DNA of 25,345 bases from Promethearchaeota archaeon (lineage in GTDB: Archaea > Asgardarchaeota > Lokiarchaeia > Sigynarchaeales > SOKP01). A program made the position numbers and the translations under genes. Positions 4,635-19,660 of the stretch are shown in pieces (the first letter of the stretch is position 1; each line of letters opens with the position of its first letter). The stretch lies in assembly GCA_014730295.1 (NCBI GenBank), contig WJIN01000186.1, forward strand, positions 1 to 25,345, read 5' to 3'. The notes beneath the pieces are model-generated. The model did not search any database, was not told the origin of the DNA, and saw only the letters and a program-made list of their open reading frames with translations.

Positions 4635-5588
4635 ATGGAAAAATTAAAAGAAGAAGCGAAACGAATTACGTCATTAGAAATCCAAGGAGCGACTAATGTC
4701 GCGTTGAACGCAATTCGATTGTTAATGGAGTATGCTTGTCGGATAGATAATGAATGTAAGACGTTTGAAGATTGGAAAGAAAAATTAGAGGAAGCTAAAG
4801 GAGTGTTATTTAAGACACGGGAAACAGAGCCAGCTATGCGAAACGGACTTAATTATATAACGCGAATGTTGGAGAAAAATAAGGAAAGGATAGAAAATGG
4901 TGAAATCCTTGATCTCATCGAGAATTTTCAAGAGGATTATCAAACTATGATTGAAACAGCAAAAGAAAAAATAGCGGAAATCGGGGCGAGAAGATTTCCT
5001 GATGATTCCTCTGAGGACGAATTCACTGTAATGACACATTGCCACTCTTCATTTGTTAATGCTATTTTAATGAAGGCAAAATCGCAGGGAAAACGATTTA
5101 AAGTAATCGCCACCGAGACTCAACCAAAGTTGCAAGGAAGGAAAACAGTAAAAAGATTAGTAGAGGCGGGCGTAGAGGTTATTCACGTGGTTGATAGCGC
5201 TATGCGGTGGGCAGTCAATAATTATGAAGTCGATTTGATACTTATTGGAGCGGATTCTGTTACATCTGAGGGAACAGTACTTAATAAGATAGGATCTCGG
5301 CTGCTCGCACTTGTTGCCCATGAGGAACATGTCCCTTTTTATGTAGCAACCACCCTGCTCAAATATAATCCAAAAACGAGTTTCGGGATTCTTGAAAAGA
5401 TTGAAATGAGGAGTCCAGAAGAGGTATGGAAAAATCCCCCAAAAGGAGTAAAAATCATAAATCCCGCTTTCGAAACGGTAAGTAGGAGATACATCGACGG
5501 GCTAATCAGCGAAGGAGGGATCTTTGCTTCGAGCCATGTACACGGATATTTTAACACATTATATCCCGATTTAGCAGAAACTTTTTAG
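4635..5588 (+). CDS. Ribose-1,5-bisphosphate isomerase (aIF2B/eIF2B-related family)
   Basis: Converts ribose 1,5-bisphosphate to ribulose 1,5-bisphosphate, the RuBisCO substrate, in the archaeal AMP/nucleoside degradation pathway. The 317 residues match the Thermococcus enzyme in size. Family motifs seen: an N-terminal helical domain, THCHSS with Cys136, ETQPKLQGR (161-169), and IGADSVTSEG with Asp207. Cys and Asp at these places correspond to the catalytic pair Cys133/Asp202 known from T. kodakarensis. Related eIF2B subunits and MtnA share the fold, but the Cys-Asp pair and a form III RuBisCO gene 1 kb away favour the isomerase role. The gene converges on the nucleoside hydrolase with 31 bases between them. 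Confidence 0.9.
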   Translation: MEKLKEEAKRITSLEIQGATNVALNAIRLLMEYACRIDNECKTFEDWKEKLEEAKGVLFKTRETEPAMRNGLNYITRMLEKNKERIENGEILDLIENFQEDYQTMIETAKEKIAEIGARRFPDDSSEDEFTVMTHCHSSFVNAILMKAKSQGKRFKVIATETQPKLQGRKTVKRLVEAGVEVIHVVDSAMRWAVNNYEVDLILIGADSVTSEGTVLNKIGSRLLALVAHEEHVPFYVATTLLKYNPKTSFGILEKIEMRSPEEVWKNPPKGVKIINPAFETVSRRYIDGLISEGGIFASSHVHGYFNTLYPDLAETF

Positions 5589-5619
5589 AAAAATTGACCA
5601 TTTTTTATTTTGGATTTCA

Positions 5620-6570
5620 TTAAGATAATATTGTTTTAAATACGTTTCTAATATATTCCTCTTGATCAATTTTCTTACATATTTCAATTAGTGCGCCATC
5701 CTCGGGATCCTCAATAATTCGCCCCGATTGCTCTCCTTCCTGCTCAATCACCCGAATTTTTCTGGTTTCTTTCTTTACTATTACTTCGTTGCCTAATATT
5801 GACGCAGCCACTAAATCCCAGAATGGAATAGAGGACGTCTCTATCCGAGAACCAAATCGTTTAATGATTTTAAGAAGAAATTGACAAATTACATTATTTT
5901 GATTATCATGCAATCGGTTAATAAACTTTTTATCAATAGGAACTTGATTGGTTACATCTAACGGGACCAAAACAACGGGGATGCCAGAATGAAAGACTAT
6001 ATTGGCTGCGTGTGGATCGCAATAGATATTCCATTCCGCATAGGGATTATCAATTGATCGTTGAACCTCAGAAATGTTTCCTTCTACATCCACGGCGCCA
6101 CCCATAATATAGATTTTTTCAATATTTTCTTTAACTTCAGGGTAATTAAGGAATAAATTGGCCAGATTAGTTAACGGTCCGAGGGCAATTAAGATAATTT
6201 TTTTAGAAGAAGTAATTATCTTTTTCATTAAATCTATGGCTTTTACTTCCAGAGGTTTTTTATTGGTTTTGGGAAACTTTATGAACAATCTTCTATCAAC
6301 AGCGAAACTCATTATCCAAGGAAATCTGTGAGAAAGTTGAAGGGCTTTTGGAGTACCATATGCTACGGGGATGTAAGATTTATTAACCATCTCAAGCAAG
6401 CGTAAGCAATTCTTTGCACCCCGTTTACCGTGAGCCTCCCCAGTTCCCGCAATGGTAATTCCTTTTATTATTACATCCTCCCGTTTTGTTAAGTAAAGAA
6501 TTGCAGCCCAGTCATCTGGCGCCATATCCGTGTCTATAATAATTGGATATGTAAAACTCTTTGAATTCAT
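5620..6570 (-). CDS. Inosine/uridine-preferring nucleoside hydrolase family protein
   Basis: Cleaves the N-glycosidic bond of ribonucleosides to base plus ribose, using a bound calcium ion. The 316 residues match the family. The N-terminal metal-binding signature reads IIIDTDMAPDDWAAI (residues 10-24), a variant of the usual DTDPGxDD. ALGPLTNLANL, a CDPHAANIVF segment and VPLDVTNQV follow, then FWDLVAAS, where the last metal-ligand Asp is retained but the usual neighbouring catalytic-region His is Trp. That change suggests altered base preference. It lies 50 bases downstream of RuBisCO on the same strand, so co-transcription is likely. Specificity cannot be set from sequence. Confidence 0.88.
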   Translation of the reverse strand: MNSKSFTYPIIIDTDMAPDDWAAILYLTKREDVIIKGITIAGTGEAHGKRGAKNCLRLLEMVNKSYIPVAYGTPKALQLSHRFPWIMSFAVDRRLFIKFPKTNKKPLEVKAIDLMKKIITSSKKIILIALGPLTNLANLFLNYPEVKENIEKIYIMGGAVDVEGNISEVQRSIDNPYAEWNIYCDPHAANIVFHSGIPVVLVPLDVTNQVPIDKKFINRLHDNQNNVICQFLLKIIKRFGSRIETSSIPFWDLVAASILGNEVIVKKETRKIRVIEQEGEQSGRIIEDPEDGALIEICKKIDQEEYIRNVFKTILS

Positions 6571-6620
6571 GAATATATCCTTTTATAATAGAATTAGAAA
6601 TATTAAAAATTTAGAGGTTC

Positions 6621-7895
6621 TTATCCCCATTTTTCAAGAGCGTGTTTTAATTCTTTATGTGTCTCTGAATATTCTTTAAGGGCAATATTATTTAAAGAAG
6701 CATCCAGCGCTTGGGTAATAGCCTTTGCACCCGCTTCCGTCCCGCTGGGATGTCCGTGGCACCCTCCTCCAAACTGGAATACCATATCTTTACCAAGAAT
6801 TTGAATTAGTTCCGGAAGGTGTAAAGGACTTAATCCTCCAGAAGCTACGGGAAGTACGGGTTTAATATGATACCATTTCTGTTCTAAGAGAGAACTATCA
6901 TTTCCGGAGATATTCGACTGCGTAATAACCTTATTAATGTCAAGTATTTCTTGCTTTTCCCCTTCCATTTTTCCGATTACGGTGCCCGTATGTAATTGAT
7001 CTACCCCAATTAATCGGGAAATCTTTGCTAAAGCCAACATAGTTAGTCCGTGTTGCTTAATTCGAGTAAAAGCAGCATGCATAGCCCGATGTGCGTGAAT
7101 GACCACATTTTTTGAATCAAGGTAATCTCGCATCTCCATTAGCGCAGAAAATCCCACAGTGACGATATCAATCATAACATATTCTCCCCCATGGTCTATC
7201 ACATAGTCCGCTCTTTCCTTCATCATGCTCACTTGTGCGGTTATGTTAGGCATATAGATTTTTTTATCTCCTGTTTCCTTTTCGATTTGATCTCTTCTTT
7301 CAAGGGTTTTTTCAACTCTCTTCTCAAATTGATTAAATTTCATACTTGTTAAGTTTTCATCGTCTTTTACAATATCTAGCCCGCCTCGCCAGGCTTGGGC
7401 GCATACCTCTGCATGTTCCGTTTCGTTTAACCCGACTTTCGGTTTTACGATCGTCCCTAAGAGAGGTCTTTTTTCAATTCCAGTCAATTTTCGAATTCCT
7501 TCTATTCCAAATTTCGGTCCCTTATAAGATCTGACAATATTTTCGGGAAAAGTCACATCTAATAACCTAAGGTATTTCAATTTTTTCATTCCATAAATAT
7601 TACCTGCTATAGCGCTTAGAATTTGAGATATATTACCCGCCTCAAACAAATCCTCCGTGTAGGCTATTTTTATTATATGTCTCTCATCATCTATATAAAA
7701 TGCCGCCGGTTTAAGGGATTGGGCAATCTCTTCTGACATGGTAAGAATCTTAGTCCATGTTCCGATTGAACTCTCCTTAGCGATTTCCATACACGCATGT
7801 TCTATATCCTTACATTCTGGTGATTTTTCAACATAATACATTGCAATTAAATCCTTCTTGCTTGGCACATAGTCTAAATCTACATAATCTACCAT
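6621..7895 (-). CDS. rbcL: Ribulose-bisphosphate carboxylase, archaeal form III
   Basis: Fixes CO2 onto ribulose 1,5-bisphosphate, giving two 3-phosphoglycerates; in archaea the form III enzyme serves nucleoside carbon recovery. Catalytic residues all appear present (numbered from ATG 7895, 424 aa): GTWT near 45-48, TIVKPKVG with Lys152, GGLDIVKDDE with the carbamylated Lys177 and metal ligands Asp179/Glu180, HAHRAMHA with His267/His269, the LHTGTVIGKMEG loop 6 with His302 and Lys309, SGG at 352-354 and FGGGCHGHPSG at 375-385. This is therefore an active carboxylase rather than a form IV RuBisCO-like protein. In-frame TTG 7913 and GTG 7904 lie upstream, but ATG 7895 gives a family-like start (MVDYVDLDYVPSKKDLIA). 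The nucleoside hydrolase follows by 50 bases; R15P isomerase faces them. Confidence 0.96.
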   Translation of the reverse strand: MVDYVDLDYVPSKKDLIAMYYVEKSPECKDIEHACMEIAKESSIGTWTKILTMSEEIAQSLKPAAFYIDDERHIIKIAYTEDLFEAGNISQILSAIAGNIYGMKKLKYLRLLDVTFPENIVRSYKGPKFGIEGIRKLTGIEKRPLLGTIVKPKVGLNETEHAEVCAQAWRGGLDIVKDDENLTSMKFNQFEKRVEKTLERRDQIEKETGDKKIYMPNITAQVSMMKERADYVIDHGGEYVMIDIVTVGFSALMEMRDYLDSKNVVIHAHRAMHAAFTRIKQHGLTMLALAKISRLIGVDQLHTGTVIGKMEGEKQEILDINKVITQSNISGNDSSLLEQKWYHIKPVLPVASGGLSPLHLPELIQILGKDMVFQFGGGCHGHPSGTEAGAKAITQALDASLNNIALKEYSETHKELKHALEKWG

Positions 7896-7967
7896 ATAAT
7901 TCACTTTATTCAATCTAATGTTATTGGATTAGCTATTTAATTTAAGAAAGAAGGAAATGATAAAAAA

Positions 7968-14990: not shown

Positions 14991-16556
14991 TTATTCGATA
15001 TCCACGCGAAGGCCGTATCCGATAAGTCGATACCGACGGTTGATAATGCGTGAAATCGCAAAAATAAAATTTCGCGGTACACATATAGGTGGGTTTAATT
15101 CAATAATATATGTATCTTTCAGGATTTTTTTCACCGTGCCCGCACAGCGCTCGGTTCCAACTACCATTAAAAGACGTTCTCCGTGTTTTAATTCATGGAC
15201 TTTAATCATCTCTTCGGTACCAATAACTCTATCAAGGAGATGGACTTCTAATTCCACTTCATTTAAAACAGGTGGCAAAGTATTGGGCTTCCCCACCAAA
15301 TTTCCTATCAAAGCGTCTCCTTTCGTTAATGCCGGATCGAGTTTTGTTCCGAGTCCGATTAACCCTCCTGGCTTTCCCTCTTCCAGAAAGACGCTTCCTT
15401 GGCTGATACTCACTACTTCTGAAGTGATTGGGACATATCCATCTTTTCTTTTAAGGCCAGGTCTGATCTCTATTTCGTCTCCTACCTTTACTTTTCCTTT
15501 TAGCACAGAACCCCCAATTACACCTCCGATAAGTTGAGTAATATCCGTTCCTGGTTTATTCACGTCAAACGAGCGAGCAATTAGGAATTCAAAATCTTCA
15601 GTTTCATCCAGTTCTGGAGTTGGGATAAATTCCTCAAATGCACTGACAACCAACTCTAAATTCGCGCTAAAAACAGCAGAAGTAGGGATAATAGGTGCAT
15701 TTTCGGCTACAGTGCCTTTTACAAATTCCTTAATCTGATTGAAATTCTTCTGTGCCTCTTCTCGATCCACAGCATCAATTTTATTTTGGATGATAATAAT
15801 ATTTTCTATTCCCGCAATATCCAAGGCCGCAAGATGTTCTCTAGTCTGGGGTTGAGGACATTTCTCATCCGCAGCAATTAATAAACATGCGCCGTCCATA
15901 AGGGATGCTCCGCTCAGCATGGTCGCCATGAGAATCTCGTGTCCTGGGGCATCGACGAACGATATATTTCGTTTAAATTGCACTTGACTGTCACATTTGG
16001 GACATCTAAAACGAGGTTGCCCTTTTTCTCTTTGCTCTTCTAACATATGAAGGGTCATATAATAATCACAAGCCGGACAATATAGGATGGTGGAGTTGGA
16101 GTAGCCTAATTTGATCGAAATTCCCCGTTCTTGCTCTTCTGAATGACGATCCGTCCAATCTCCTGTAAGAGCTTCAACTAATGTCGTTTTACCGTGGTCC
16201 ACATGCCCAACGAGCCCTATATTGCATTCTGCTTGCTGCTTAATAAGAGCTTTTAATTCTGCCGTAGTTTTTTCCTCTTCTGGCGTCTTGGGTTTCTTTT
16301 CTGCTTTTTTCGGTTTTTCGGGTTCTTCTTTCTTTTCTTCCTCAAGACTAACCTTTTGTTCTTTAGGTGTTTCCCCAAGGAGTTTTTGTGCAGTTTCAAT
16401 ATATTTAGAAGCCGTGCTTTTTCCGATACCTTTCACTTTTAATAATTCCTCTACTTTCAGATTGGCGAGTTTTTCGACACTATCGATTCCCGCCTCACGC
16501 AAACTTTCCGCAGTGGCTTTCCCGATCCCAGTGATATCTTCTAATTGTAGAGACAT
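14991..16556 (-). CDS. Translation initiation factor aIF2 gamma with N-terminal helix-hairpin-helix extension
   Basis: GTPase subunit of the aIF2 trimer that carries initiator Met-tRNA to the small ribosomal subunit. The 521 residues exceed the usual length of about 410. The canonical part starts near residue 110: G1 GHVDHGKTT (117-125), switch I region QERGISIKLGY, a zinc knuckle with CPAC and CPKC, G3 DAPGH, G4 NKID and G5 TSAVF, then two beta-barrel domains ending RRYRLIGYGLRVDIE. All GTPase motifs are intact. The extra N-terminus has two helix-hairpin-helix motifs (ITGIGKATAESLREAGI at 8-24 and VKGIGKSTASKYIETA at 41-56), resembling the RadA/Rad51 N-terminal domain, then a Lys/Glu/Pro-rich linker (63-100). 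The extension is in frame from ATG 16556 and uses the same codon style as the rest. Confidence 0.95.
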   Translation of the reverse strand: MSLQLEDITGIGKATAESLREAGIDSVEKLANLKVEELLKVKGIGKSTASKYIETAQKLLGETPKEQKVSLEEEKKEEPEKPKKAEKKPKTPEEEKTTAELKALIKQQAECNIGLVGHVDHGKTTLVEALTGDWTDRHSEEQERGISIKLGYSNSTILYCPACDYYMTLHMLEEQREKGQPRFRCPKCDSQVQFKRNISFVDAPGHEILMATMLSGASLMDGACLLIAADEKCPQPQTREHLAALDIAGIENIIIIQNKIDAVDREEAQKNFNQIKEFVKGTVAENAPIIPTSAVFSANLELVVSAFEEFIPTPELDETEDFEFLIARSFDVNKPGTDITQLIGGVIGGSVLKGKVKVGDEIEIRPGLKRKDGYVPITSEVVSISQGSVFLEEGKPGGLIGLGTKLDPALTKGDALIGNLVGKPNTLPPVLNEVELEVHLLDRVIGTEEMIKVHELKHGERLLMVVGTERCAGTVKKILKDTYIIELNPPICVPRNFIFAISRIINRRYRLIGYGLRVDIE

Positions 16557-19208: not shown

Positions 19209-19421
19209 ACATCAACTCAAAGCTTATCTGATAAAATGAAAAAAGCGGTATTTTATGTTTTACCCAATTTAAAGCAAAAATGAGACCTCGAATAGCCCCG
19301 CTCACTTATCCCTTTTAAATTTAATGGTTTTCCATAGAAAACTTTAATTATAAGCTTTTACTACATTTATTTACCTAAAACCATTATGTTTTAAGTTATC
19401 AATTTCCCAGAAATTGAGATA

Positions 19422-19430
19422 CTTAAAAAG
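19422..19430 (+). promoter_or_regulatory. TATA-like box for permuted 5S RNA
   Basis: CTTAAAAAG centred at 19426. Spacing of about 26 bases predicts a start near 19445-19452, at or just inside the outer stem of the RNA. The RNA thus seems to have its own promoter and not to depend on a 16S-23S operon. Confidence 0.45.
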
Positions 19431-19443
19431 TTAATATGGTTGA

Positions 19444-19660
19444 TGTTCGTAGCCACATACGATGTAGCATTCCGCTACAGCGCTGGAAGTTAAACTTTGT
19501 TGCGTTAGTAATAGTACTTCTGTTGAAATCAGCGGGAAATACTAAACTGTGAGTTCGCTCACGGTCATAGTAACAAAGGATAGTACCTGGTCCCATTCCG
19601 AAAGTGCCTCTAACTTGTGGGGGACCGGAAACCCAGAAACGCCTTCTATGTGGCTGAACA
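19444..19660 (+). rRNA. 5S ribosomal RNA, circularly permuted, with added terminal stem
   Basis: All 5S elements are present but in rotated order. First the 3' half: GAAGTTAA of loop B (19486-19493), CTTTGTT (helix II 3', 19495-19501), GCG of loop A (19502-19504), TTAGTA (helix V, 19505-19510), TAGTACT of loop E (19512-19518), GGGAA (19534-19538), TACTAA (helix V, 19540-19545) and CTGTGAG (helix I 3', 19547-19553). A TTCG loop (19554-19557) joins this to the 5' half: CTCACGG (helix I 5', 19558-19564), CATAG of loop A (19566-19570), AACAAAG (helix II 5', 19572-19578), CTGGTCCC (helix III, 19587-19594), CATTCCGAA of loop C (19594-19602) and GGGACCGG (19621-19628). Helix II pairs 7/7, helix V 6/6, helix I 7/7 with one G-U. 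New ends are closed by TGTTC(gt)AGCCACATA (19444-19459) with TATGTGGCTGAACA (19647-19660), and inside that by GCG-CTGG with CCAG-AAA-CGC. A side hairpin GTAGC-ATTCC-GCTAC lies at 19464-19478. A normal 5S is about 120 bases; this locus is 217. Confidence 0.85.

What the first reader, a model, noticed from the sequence alone, without database searches (positions are those of the whole stretch)
19444..19660. Circularly permuted 5S rRNA gene in an archaeal chromosome
Seen: the conserved 5S 3'-half blocks (GAAGTTAA, GCG, TAGTACT, GGGAAAT) come before the 5'-half blocks (CATAG, GGTCCCATTCCGAA). Helix II is formed by AACAAAG (19572-19578) and CTTTGTT (19495-19501) with 7 of 7 pairs. Helix V is TTAGTA/TACTAA with 6 of 6. 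Helix I is CTGTGAG/CTCACGG capped by a TTCG tetraloop, so the normal 5S ends are joined. Known: 5S in virtually all organisms begins and ends in helix I; permuted 5S genes are documented in mitochondria of some stramenopiles (Rfam family mtPerm-5S). I know of no described archaeal case, but I cannot search. Inference: the cell uses this RNA as its ribosomal 5S.
Basis: partly seen in the sequence, partly recalled or inferred. Interest (0 to 1): 0.96.

Follow-up and report, generated by a model that had tools for sequence, protein, structure and literature searches.

The report
Permuted, likely circular 5S rRNA gene
In this Asgard archaeon, and in most Asgard genomes searched, the gene for 5S ribosomal RNA is written with its second half first and its usual two ends joined by a small hairpin, and its transcript is predicted to be cut and sealed into a ring, a form of this ribosome part that my literature searches did not find described.

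Summary
A model of 14 ordinary archaeal 5S rRNAs permuted in silico hits 19489-19638 with 67.1 bits, E 4e-14. The same 14 in natural order score 22.0; Rfam 5S scores 16.7, cut-off 38. Of 227 Asgard genomes, 136 carry a permuted 5S, 59 a natural-order one, 32 neither. Seven essentially single-contig permuted genomes have no Rfam 5S hit over the cut-off. The break is in loop B (19638|19489), not loop C.

New here: the gene's outer ends form a bulge-helix-bulge, the substrate of archaeal tRNA-splicing endonuclease, in 82 of 119 distinct loci (shuffled partners 10.5). In 74 of the 82 a symmetric cut and ligation restores canonical 5S spacing. Six genomes are opened in loop C instead, and there too the best bulge-helix-bulge restores the canonical junction. 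The predicted product is a circular 5S rRNA; no RNA data were available. Closed Heimdallarchaeum genomes were reported without predictable 5S (PMC8813620); permutation is a likely reason. Paper searches found no archaeal permuted or circular 5S.

The parts
19489..19638 (+). 5S rRNA in permuted order; predicted 150-nt circle after joining 19638 to 19489
   Evidence: R1 (permuted canonical model) 67.1 bits, E 4.3e-14; natural-order model 22.0
19495..19501 (+). helix II, 3' strand (CTTTGTT), here upstream of its partner
   Evidence: helix 80.0% paired, 6 of 7 pairs with two-sided changes in 25 loci
19572..19578 (+). helix II, 5' strand (AACAAAG)
19505..19510 (+). helix V, 5' strand (TTAGTA), paired with 19540-19545
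   Evidence: (98.0% of cells paired)
19520..19532 (+). helix IV core, CTG 19520-19522 with CAG 19530-19532
   Evidence: (100% of cells paired)
19540..19545 (+). helix V, 3' strand (TACTAA)
19547..19564 (+). helix I (CTGTGAG/CTCACGG) with the normal 5S ends sealed by a TTCG tetraloop (19554-19557)
   Evidence: caps of 6 nt or less in 134 of 139 permuted hits, TTCG in 57
19587..19590 (+). helix III, 5' strand (CUGG), pairs with CCAG 19633-19636 in the finished 5S
   Evidence: one of the four pairs is C-G in 18 and U-A in 7 of 25 loci, the other three do not vary
19603..19632 (+). 30-nt insert in loop C
   Evidence: insert in the R1 alignment; similar inserts in some Loki relatives
19633..19636 (+). 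strand C (CCAG): helix III 3' strand in the finished 5S; central BHB helix with 19483-19486 in the predicted precursor
19483..19486 (+). strand A (CTGG): central 4-bp BHB helix with 19633-19636
19487..19489 (+). 5'-side bulge (AAG, or AA if a short inner helix forms); predicted cut 19488|19489
   Evidence: symmetric cutting stated in PMC7758197, position after the second bulge nucleotide recalled
19637..19639 (+). 3'-side bulge (AAA); predicted cut 19638|19639
   Evidence: size 3 preferred across loci
19480..19482 (+). outer helix GCG, pairs with CGC 19640-19642
   Evidence: two of the three pairs counted
19640..19642 (+). outer helix CGC
19451..19459 (+). leader strand of the terminal stem (AGCCACATA)
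   Evidence: predicted de novo on 25 relatives with some two-sided changes
19464..19478 (+). leader hairpin GTAGC-ATTCC-GCTAC
19647..19655 (+). trailer strand of the terminal stem (TATGTGGCT)
19420..19429 (+). TATA-like promoter element (TACTTAAAAA); function inferred
   Evidence: read; GATACTTAAA also upstream in L093, L094 and L095, close variants in L092 and L096

Best explanation
[quoted passage not shown] Shown: the permuted order, conservation of the 5S helices by covariation, no Rfam 5S hit over the cut-off in seven essentially single-contig permuted relatives, and a conserved bulge-helix-bulge layout at the gene's outer ends whose symmetric cutting and joining would restore canonical 5S spacing. 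Inferred: transcription from the TATA-like element near 19420, cleavage by an EndA-type enzyme in the two bulges (19488|19489 and 19638|19639), ligation (RtcB or another ligase), release of leader and trailer, a switch of strand CCAG (19633-19636) from the leader strand to helix III, and use of the 150-nt circle in the ribosome.
For: Permuted model 67.1 bits against 22.0 for the same sequences unpermuted. Permuted hits of 49.9-108.1 bits in 34 of 36 sources tested; the other two are L086 (two partial hits) and L090 (none). 136 of 227 Asgard genomes permuted, 59 natural order, 32 neither. 5S helices: 94.4% of cells paired against 76.3% shuffled, covariation 0.532 against 0.184. BHB: 82 of 119 distinct loci have the 4-bp helix, 3-nt 3'-side bulge and at least 3 outer pairs; bulge sizes 0, 1, 2, 4, 5, 6 give 0, 3, 6, 3, 10, 21 loci; shuffled partners give 10.5 (sd 2.9, max 18). 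BHB pairs covary in Loki-type loci and differ between groups: CCGG/CCGG, CTGG/CCAG, CGTG/CACG, CGAG/CTCG, CAAG/CTTG, CGGG/CCCG. 74 of the 82 are in register, restoring canonical spacing. In six genomes the gene is opened in loop C instead, and the best-scoring BHB in each restores a canonical loop C, CCCGGUC|CCAUCCGAAC in five of them, which may be close relatives. EndA family in 7 of 7 and RtcB in 6 of 7 permuted single-contig genomes.
Against: No RNA was examined, so neither cutting nor circularity is shown. The register agreement is weaker evidence than it looks: among shuffled partners that pass by chance, 8.6 of 10.5 are also in register, because the loci are homologous; the excess lies in the number of loci, 74 against 8.6 (max 15). 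37 of 119 loci fail the strict BHB criterion; nine of these have CCGA/CCGG with one mismatch. The 5'-side bulge is 2 to 4 nt if a short inner helix (1-3 bp) forms, so the motif is relaxed. In 7 of the 82 the predicted junction is one nucleotide longer than canonical, and one arrangement is plainly spurious. In the unbiased scan of the window another pairing scores slightly higher (21.5 against 20); in CR_4 (L287) the proposed motif ranks third; for L253 the scan found no canonical junction among its top four. G139 has no RtcB match. A circle could be re-linearised, as is believed for archaeal 16S and 23S intermediates (PMC12918454).
Confidence: 0.72

Rival explanations
1. The permuted RNA stays linear, with new ends in loop B or at the terminal stem, and works in the ribosome as a linear permuted 5S, as proposed for permuted mitochondrial 5S (recalled). 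The terminal pairing would only protect the ends or serve ordinary end trimming.
For: The order and sealed helix I need no splicing to fold as 5S. Permuted 5S is cited as a natural permutation in PMC10085705.
Against: Strand C cannot pair with the leader and with helix III at once, yet both pairings are conserved, which fits a transient precursor structure. The 3'-side bulge is 3 nt in 79 of 90 loci with any arrangement. The BHB sits at the outer ends at two different break points, loop B and loop C.
Confidence: 0.12
2. A circular intermediate forms by BHB splicing and is then opened again in the helix I cap, giving a linear 5S with ordinary ends, as in permuted tRNAs.
For: Permuted pre-tRNAs mature that way via a circular intermediate (PMC3978253 and PMC4090602, passages).
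Against: The cap is 6 nt or less in 134 of 139 hits, most often UUCG (57). The R1 model penalises long linkers, so this count leans to short caps. I know of no 5S end-processing enzyme that would cut such a cap (recalled).
Confidence: 0.13
3. The locus is a decayed 5S pseudogene or a 5S-derived regulatory RNA, and the real 5S lies elsewhere.
For: No whole genome is held for the window, so a second 5S cannot be excluded there.
Against: Permuted 5S occurs in 63 of 83 genomes of the class and 136 of 227 of the phylum with strong covariation. None of seven essentially single-contig permuted genomes has an Rfam 5S hit over the cut-off.
Confidence: 0.02
4. Assembly artefact: chimeric or tandem natural-order copies misread as a permuted gene.
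For: Tandem copies exist: three natural copies in G019 and two permuted copies in G143.
Against: Permuted order occurs in 136 genomes, several essentially single-contig, with a sealed helix I and a conserved BHB that a natural-order tandem would not have.
Confidence: 0.01

Closest known systems
Circularly permuted SRP RNA genes of Thermoproteus (Plagens et al. 2015, as described in PMC7758197, passage)
   Same: Gene rearranged in the DNA; leader and trailer form a BHB; the tRNA-splicing machinery yields a circular functional RNA.
   Different: SRP RNA, two species of one genus; here it is a ribosomal RNA in 136 of 227 Asgard genomes, and processing is not yet shown.
Permuted mitochondrial 5S rRNA (mtPerm-5S, RF02547; Valach et al. 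2014, paper not held; known from the finding and a citation in PMC10085705)
   Same: 5S with the 3' half first and helix I closed by a loop (closing recalled).
   Different: Organellar. The mtPerm-5S model gives no match at the permuted locus in 10 permuted genomes searched. I recall no BHB there.
Circularly permuted tRNA genes (PMC3978253, PMC4090602, passages)
   Same: 3' half upstream, normal ends bridged by a short loop, BHB at the outer ends, circular intermediate.
   Different: tRNA ends are then made by RNase P and tRNase Z; here the cap is a tight loop in helix I with no cutter known to me.
Circular archaeal 23S/16S rRNA (PMC7758197, PMC12918454, passages)
   Different: Those genes are in natural order. 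PMC12918454 says that studies of pure cultures show this often for 16S and 23S but not 5S.
Rfam RF00001 5S rRNA
   Same: 5S helices and loop motifs present.
   Different: Linear order permuted; 16.7 bits against a cut-off of 38.

Membership tests
5S rRNA (RF00001) | reaches Rfam gathering score in natural order | tested here: not met
   16.7 bits, cut-off 38
5S rRNA (RF00001) | 5S helices and conserved loops, any order | tested here: met
   permuted canonical model 67.1 bits; covariation
5S rRNA (RF00001) | cell has no other 5S and has the 5S-binding protein uL18 | tested here: inconclusive
   not testable in the window's own genome; in permuted single-contig relatives no Rfam hit over cut-off in 7 of 7, uL18 (PF17144) in 6 of 7, G138 none
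5S rRNA (RF00001) | RNA is in the ribosome | not testable with these tools
   no RNA or structure data
mtPerm-5S (RF02547) | match to the Rfam model | tested here: not met
   not listed for the window at E up to 10 (a weaker overlapping match of the same clan would be hidden); 0 of 10 permuted genomes over cut-off and no match at their permuted locus, with 150 of up to 573 candidates scored per genome
mtPerm-5S (RF02547) | mitochondrial genome | tested here: not met
   window encodes an aIF2-gamma 96% identical to that of a Lokiarchaeota MAG and a RuBisCO large chain
Bulge-helix-bulge splicing substrate | 4-bp central helix | tested here: met
   CTGG/CCAG; 99.0% of cells paired in 25 loci
Bulge-helix-bulge splicing substrate | two 3-nt bulges | tested here: inconclusive
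   3' side 3 nt in 79 of 90 loci with any arrangement; 5' side 2 to 4 nt depending on a short inner helix
Bulge-helix-bulge splicing substrate | cut by EndA and ligated | not testable with these tools
   EndA family present in 10 of 10 and RtcB in 9 of 10 genomes tested
Circularly permuted RNA gene matured via a circle (tRNA, SRP RNA) | halves reversed, old ends bridged, BHB at new ends | tested here: met
Circularly permuted RNA gene matured via a circle (tRNA, SRP RNA) | circular RNA detected | not testable with these tools
   no reads available

The most novel reading that the evidence does not exclude
Most Asgard archaea build their ribosomes with a covalently closed circular 5S rRNA, made from a permuted gene by the tRNA-splicing machinery; because the RNA is a circle, the place where the gene is opened has moved during evolution between loop B and loop C.
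Probability: 0.68. Interest if true: 0.97.

Novelty: new variant of a known kind. Interest (0 to 1): 0.93.

Why it matters
5S rRNA is commonly treated as one of the most invariant RNAs of the ribosome (recalled). If true, a large group of archaea, the phylum held to include the closest relatives of eukaryotes (recalled; also the abstract start of PMC8813620), has rewritten the gene and likely uses a ring-shaped 5S. [quoted passage not shown] It would mean that tools tuned to natural order, such as Rfam's cut-off here, miss the 5S of permuted genomes. It gives a simple testable prediction: junction reads in Asgard RNA-seq.

Tried and rejected
R1 places helix III's 3' strand at 19633-19636, although a loop-C break occurs in six other genomes.

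Rfam as sole judge: Rfam 5S gave weak, misaligned or split hits on permuted genes, so it could not decide.

Fixed-register pairing test: 62 of 122 distinct loci with 4 of 4 pairs against 32.4 shuffled. It mixed registers, so it was replaced by the register-free scan. From the 139 hits, those counts leave out four loci with short flanks (L153, L177, L196, L239), the loop-C-opened L252 and L254-L258, and L225 with a loop-C insert; duplicates were collapsed to 119. Alignment A5 used 25 of 27 loci listed (L214 and L238 left out).

Apparent natural-order 5S in permuted genomes: five permuted genomes have an Rfam hit over cut-off. Those in G042, G130 (L124, L126) and G063 (L270) look bacterial by eye and were set aside as contaminants. 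G119's 38.4-bit hit overlaps its permuted hit on contig C90. G102 carries a natural-order 5S with a BHB-like insert on another contig, origin unclear. The 61.2-bit R2 hit in G143 spans two tandem permuted copies.

Counts: 136 = 128 genomes with R1 at 53.9 bits or more, five opened in loop C (G050, G051, G054, G056, G057) and three weak ones (G040, G044, G048; 41.9-45.1 bits), permuted by reading. 59 = R2 at 60 bits or more, without G143. 32 of 227 are neither; of these G005 is permuted with a third break point by reading (I first took it for natural order) and G052 has a DNA match at a contig end.

Outside Asgard: 50 genomes searched, two of them Asgard (G006, G158); no R1 hit over 48.5 bits, and the best (G272) is natural order by reading.

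Sigma-70 promoter and terminator scan: nothing useful (not meant for archaea).

Odds changed on checking: best explanation lowered from 0.8 to 0.72 and the novel case from 0.7 to 0.68, because the shuffle control shows that register agreement is partly built in, and because the first odds did not add up to one.

Full report
What is there. The window is from a Lokiarchaeota-like genome: its aIF2-gamma is 96% identical to that of MAG Lokiarchaeota BC3 and 69-74% to three further Lokiarchaeota. ARAGORN finds no tRNA, and Rfam at E up to 1 finds only one sub-threshold CRISPR repeat, in the 25-kb window, so the 5S stands alone here. No whole genome is held for it.

Checking the observation. All quoted blocks are present. 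The region folds with z -5.6. Rfam 5S on the locus gives 16.7 bits, below its cut-off of 38. To test order as such, I took 14 natural-order archaeal 5S genes found by Rfam in other genomes (14 of the 33 listed; found). I built one covariance model with each sequence permuted in silico and NNNN between the old ends (R1), and one with the same sequences in natural order (R2). Neither contains the window or a permuted gene; both carry a structure drawn by hand on one member, which RNAalifold largely agreed with. In the window R1 has one hit, 19489-19638, 67.1 bits, E 4.3e-14, and R2 gives 22.0 bits. The R1 alignment places the 3' strand of helix III at 19633-19636 and leaves a 30-nt insert in loop C. 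So the gene is opened in loop B, and the canonical junction is 19638|19489.

Conservation. DNA search finds the locus in 57 of 83 genomes of the class. R1 hits 34 of 36 fetched sources with 49.9-108.1 bits (L089 and L109 are the same gene), including Baldrarchaeota MAG_95 (G007) with 108.1. R2 never exceeds 39.9 on them. Over 227 genomes of the phylum (compiled) 136 carry a permuted 5S: 128 with R1 at 53.9 bits or more, five opened in loop C and three weak. Another 59 have a natural-order gene (R2 at 60 bits or more), and 32 have neither. At these thresholds the two sets do not overlap, after setting aside one R2 hit spanning tandem permuted copies (G143) and, at the Rfam level, five over-cut-off hits in permuted genomes that look bacterial (G042, G130, G063), overlap the permuted gene (G119) or carry an intron-like insert (G102). 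In the window's class 63 of 83 are permuted, 6 are natural order and 14 neither. By named loci, natural order holds in three Thorarchaeota (G008-G010) and in a genome labelled Hermod (G158). In the 48 non-Asgard archaea no R1 hit exceeds 48.5 bits, and that best one reads as natural order.

Is it the only 5S? Seven permuted genomes are essentially single contigs by length (G139, G179, G097, G138, G140, G053, G054). Rfam 5S at E up to 10 finds nothing over cut-off in any of them; the best is 32.7 bits, at the permuted locus itself, while three natural-order controls score 60-68. 6 of these 7 show the 5S-binding protein uL18 (G138 gave none). The window's own genome could not be searched.

Covariation. 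On 25 Loki-type loci aligned by MAFFT without structure, the 5S helices are 94.4% paired against 76.3% in shuffles; sliding by one column drops this to 41.8-47.2%. 18 of 27 pairs have changes on both sides, against 14.6 in shuffles; helix II is the weakest with 80.0% paired. RNAalifold finds helices I to V and a terminal stem de novo. On 54 distinct sequences from across the phylum the covariation score is 0.648 against 0.193 shuffled; that alignment was fitted to the model and so leans towards it.

The ends. A leader strand (A: CTGG in the window) just upstream of the core can pair with helix III's own 3' strand (C: CCAG) and is followed outward by a further helix. This is the layout of a bulge-helix-bulge, defined as a 4-bp helix with two 3-nt bulges (PMC4090602 and PMC7758197, passages). 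In a scan free to choose the register, 82 of 119 distinct loci have a perfect 4-bp helix (G-U allowed) plus a 3-nt 3'-side bulge plus at least three outer pairs. Bulge sizes 0, 1, 2, 4, 5 and 6 give 0, 3, 6, 3, 10 and 21 loci, and shuffled partners give 10.5 (sd 2.9, max 18). In 74 of the 82 the two sides are in register, so a symmetric cut and ligation restores the canonical spacing. This agreement is partly built in by homology: of the 10.5 chance arrangements 8.6 are in register too (max 15). The pairing differs between groups in a compensating way: CCGG/CCGG, CTGG/CCAG, CGTG/CACG, CGAG/CTCG, CAAG/CTTG, CGGG/CCCG. In 25 Loki-type loci 99.3% of cells are paired (shuffled 89.3%) with covariation 0.354 against 0.137. 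On the 5' side the bulge is 2 to 4 nt if a 1-3 bp inner helix forms, so the motif is relaxed. That cutting is symmetric is stated in PMC7758197; the exact position after the second bulge nucleotide is recalled.

A second and a third break point. In six genomes (G031, G050, G051, G054, G056, G057) the gene is opened in loop C and the loop B junction is intact. In each, the best-scoring BHB of an unbiased scan sits at the new ends and gives a 121-nt circle. In five, which look alike and may be close relatives, the junction is CCCGGUC|CCAUCCGAAC, the common loop C sequence; in G031 (L252) it is CCCAGAA|ACAUUCCGAAC. In Lokiarchaeota CR_4 (G005) the gene is opened on the other strand of loop B; a BHB there also gives 121 nt and a canonical-looking junction, but only as third-ranked candidate. 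In the same scan the window's motif ranks second (20 against 21.5), and none of the top four for L253 gives a canonical junction. Movement of the opening while the junction stays canonical is what a circular product would allow.

The sealed end. Helix I is capped by 6 nt or less in 134 of 139 hits, TTCG in 57. Enzymes: EndA family in 7 of 7 and RtcB in 6 of 7 of the permuted single-contig genomes; G139 has no RtcB match.

Mechanism. I propose transcription from the TATA-like element near 19420, pairing of leader and trailer, cutting in both bulges, ligation, and then helix III formation by the released strand C. Every step after the DNA arrangement is inferred. The same scheme is reported for Thermoproteus SRP RNA (PMC7758197, passage), and a related one for permuted tRNAs (passages).

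Literature. Searches for 'permuted 5S' and 'circular 5S rRNA' in 5.39 million open papers gave none. Searches combining 5S rRNA with permuted, circularly permuted, Asgard, Lokiarchaeota, cryo-EM, Promethearchaeota or Heimdallarchae listed no paper whose title or abstract start describes it; of those listed I read passages of seven and none in full. PMC8813620 reports that 5S sequences could not be predicted in closed Heimdallarchaeum genomes (passage); PMC9723677 on the other hand reports a 5S in two Asgard MAGs of other lineages (passages), order not stated. Subscription papers and preprints were not searchable, so prior description cannot be excluded. The paper on permuted mitochondrial 5S was not held; its Rfam model finds no permuted Asgard locus in 10 genomes.

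Verdict. A permuted 5S gene is as good as certain. That it is the functional 5S is very likely. Circularity is the best-supported mechanism but needs RNA.

Noticed in passing
L289 (G102 contig C117), minus strand; L271: Natural-order archaeal 5S with a ~23-nt insert at the same loop-B site, flanked by CACG/CGTG and 3-nt bulges: looks like a BHB intron in a 5S gene, between tRNA-like sequences by eye. Possibly a contaminating contig.
   Followed up: partly
L283 (G215 contig C15): Natural-order 5S with a ~30-nt insert between GTTAA and helix II; possible second intron-like insert.
   Followed up: no
L230/L275 (G143 contig C510): Two permuted 5S copies in tandem, 157 bp apart, so a natural-order reading spans them; tandem copies offer a route between the two orders.
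   Followed up: partly
L146 (G019 contig C1, 1399892-1400758): Three natural-order 5S copies in tandem about 375 bp apart in a genome of the window's class.
   Followed up: no
L272 (G088 contig C277): Permuted 5S with a ~32-nt insert between CTACCC and GTTCTC near helix III; its top-ranked BHB still gives a canonical loop B junction.
   Followed up: partly
19393-19424: Palindrome AAGTTATCAATTTC-CCA-GAAATTGAGATACTT over the promoter region, with similar sequences in L092-L094; possible regulator site.
   Followed up: no
4635-7913: eIF2B-like protein, nucleoside hydrolase and RuBisCO large chain side by side (Pfam), reminiscent of the archaeal nucleoside-to-RuBisCO pathway (recalled).
   Followed up: no
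14991-16556: aIF2-gamma with an N-terminal helix-hairpin-helix extension (Pfam HHH_5).
   Followed up: no
G139: Single-contig 1.39-Mb permuted genome without an RtcB match; another ligase may act there.
   Followed up: no
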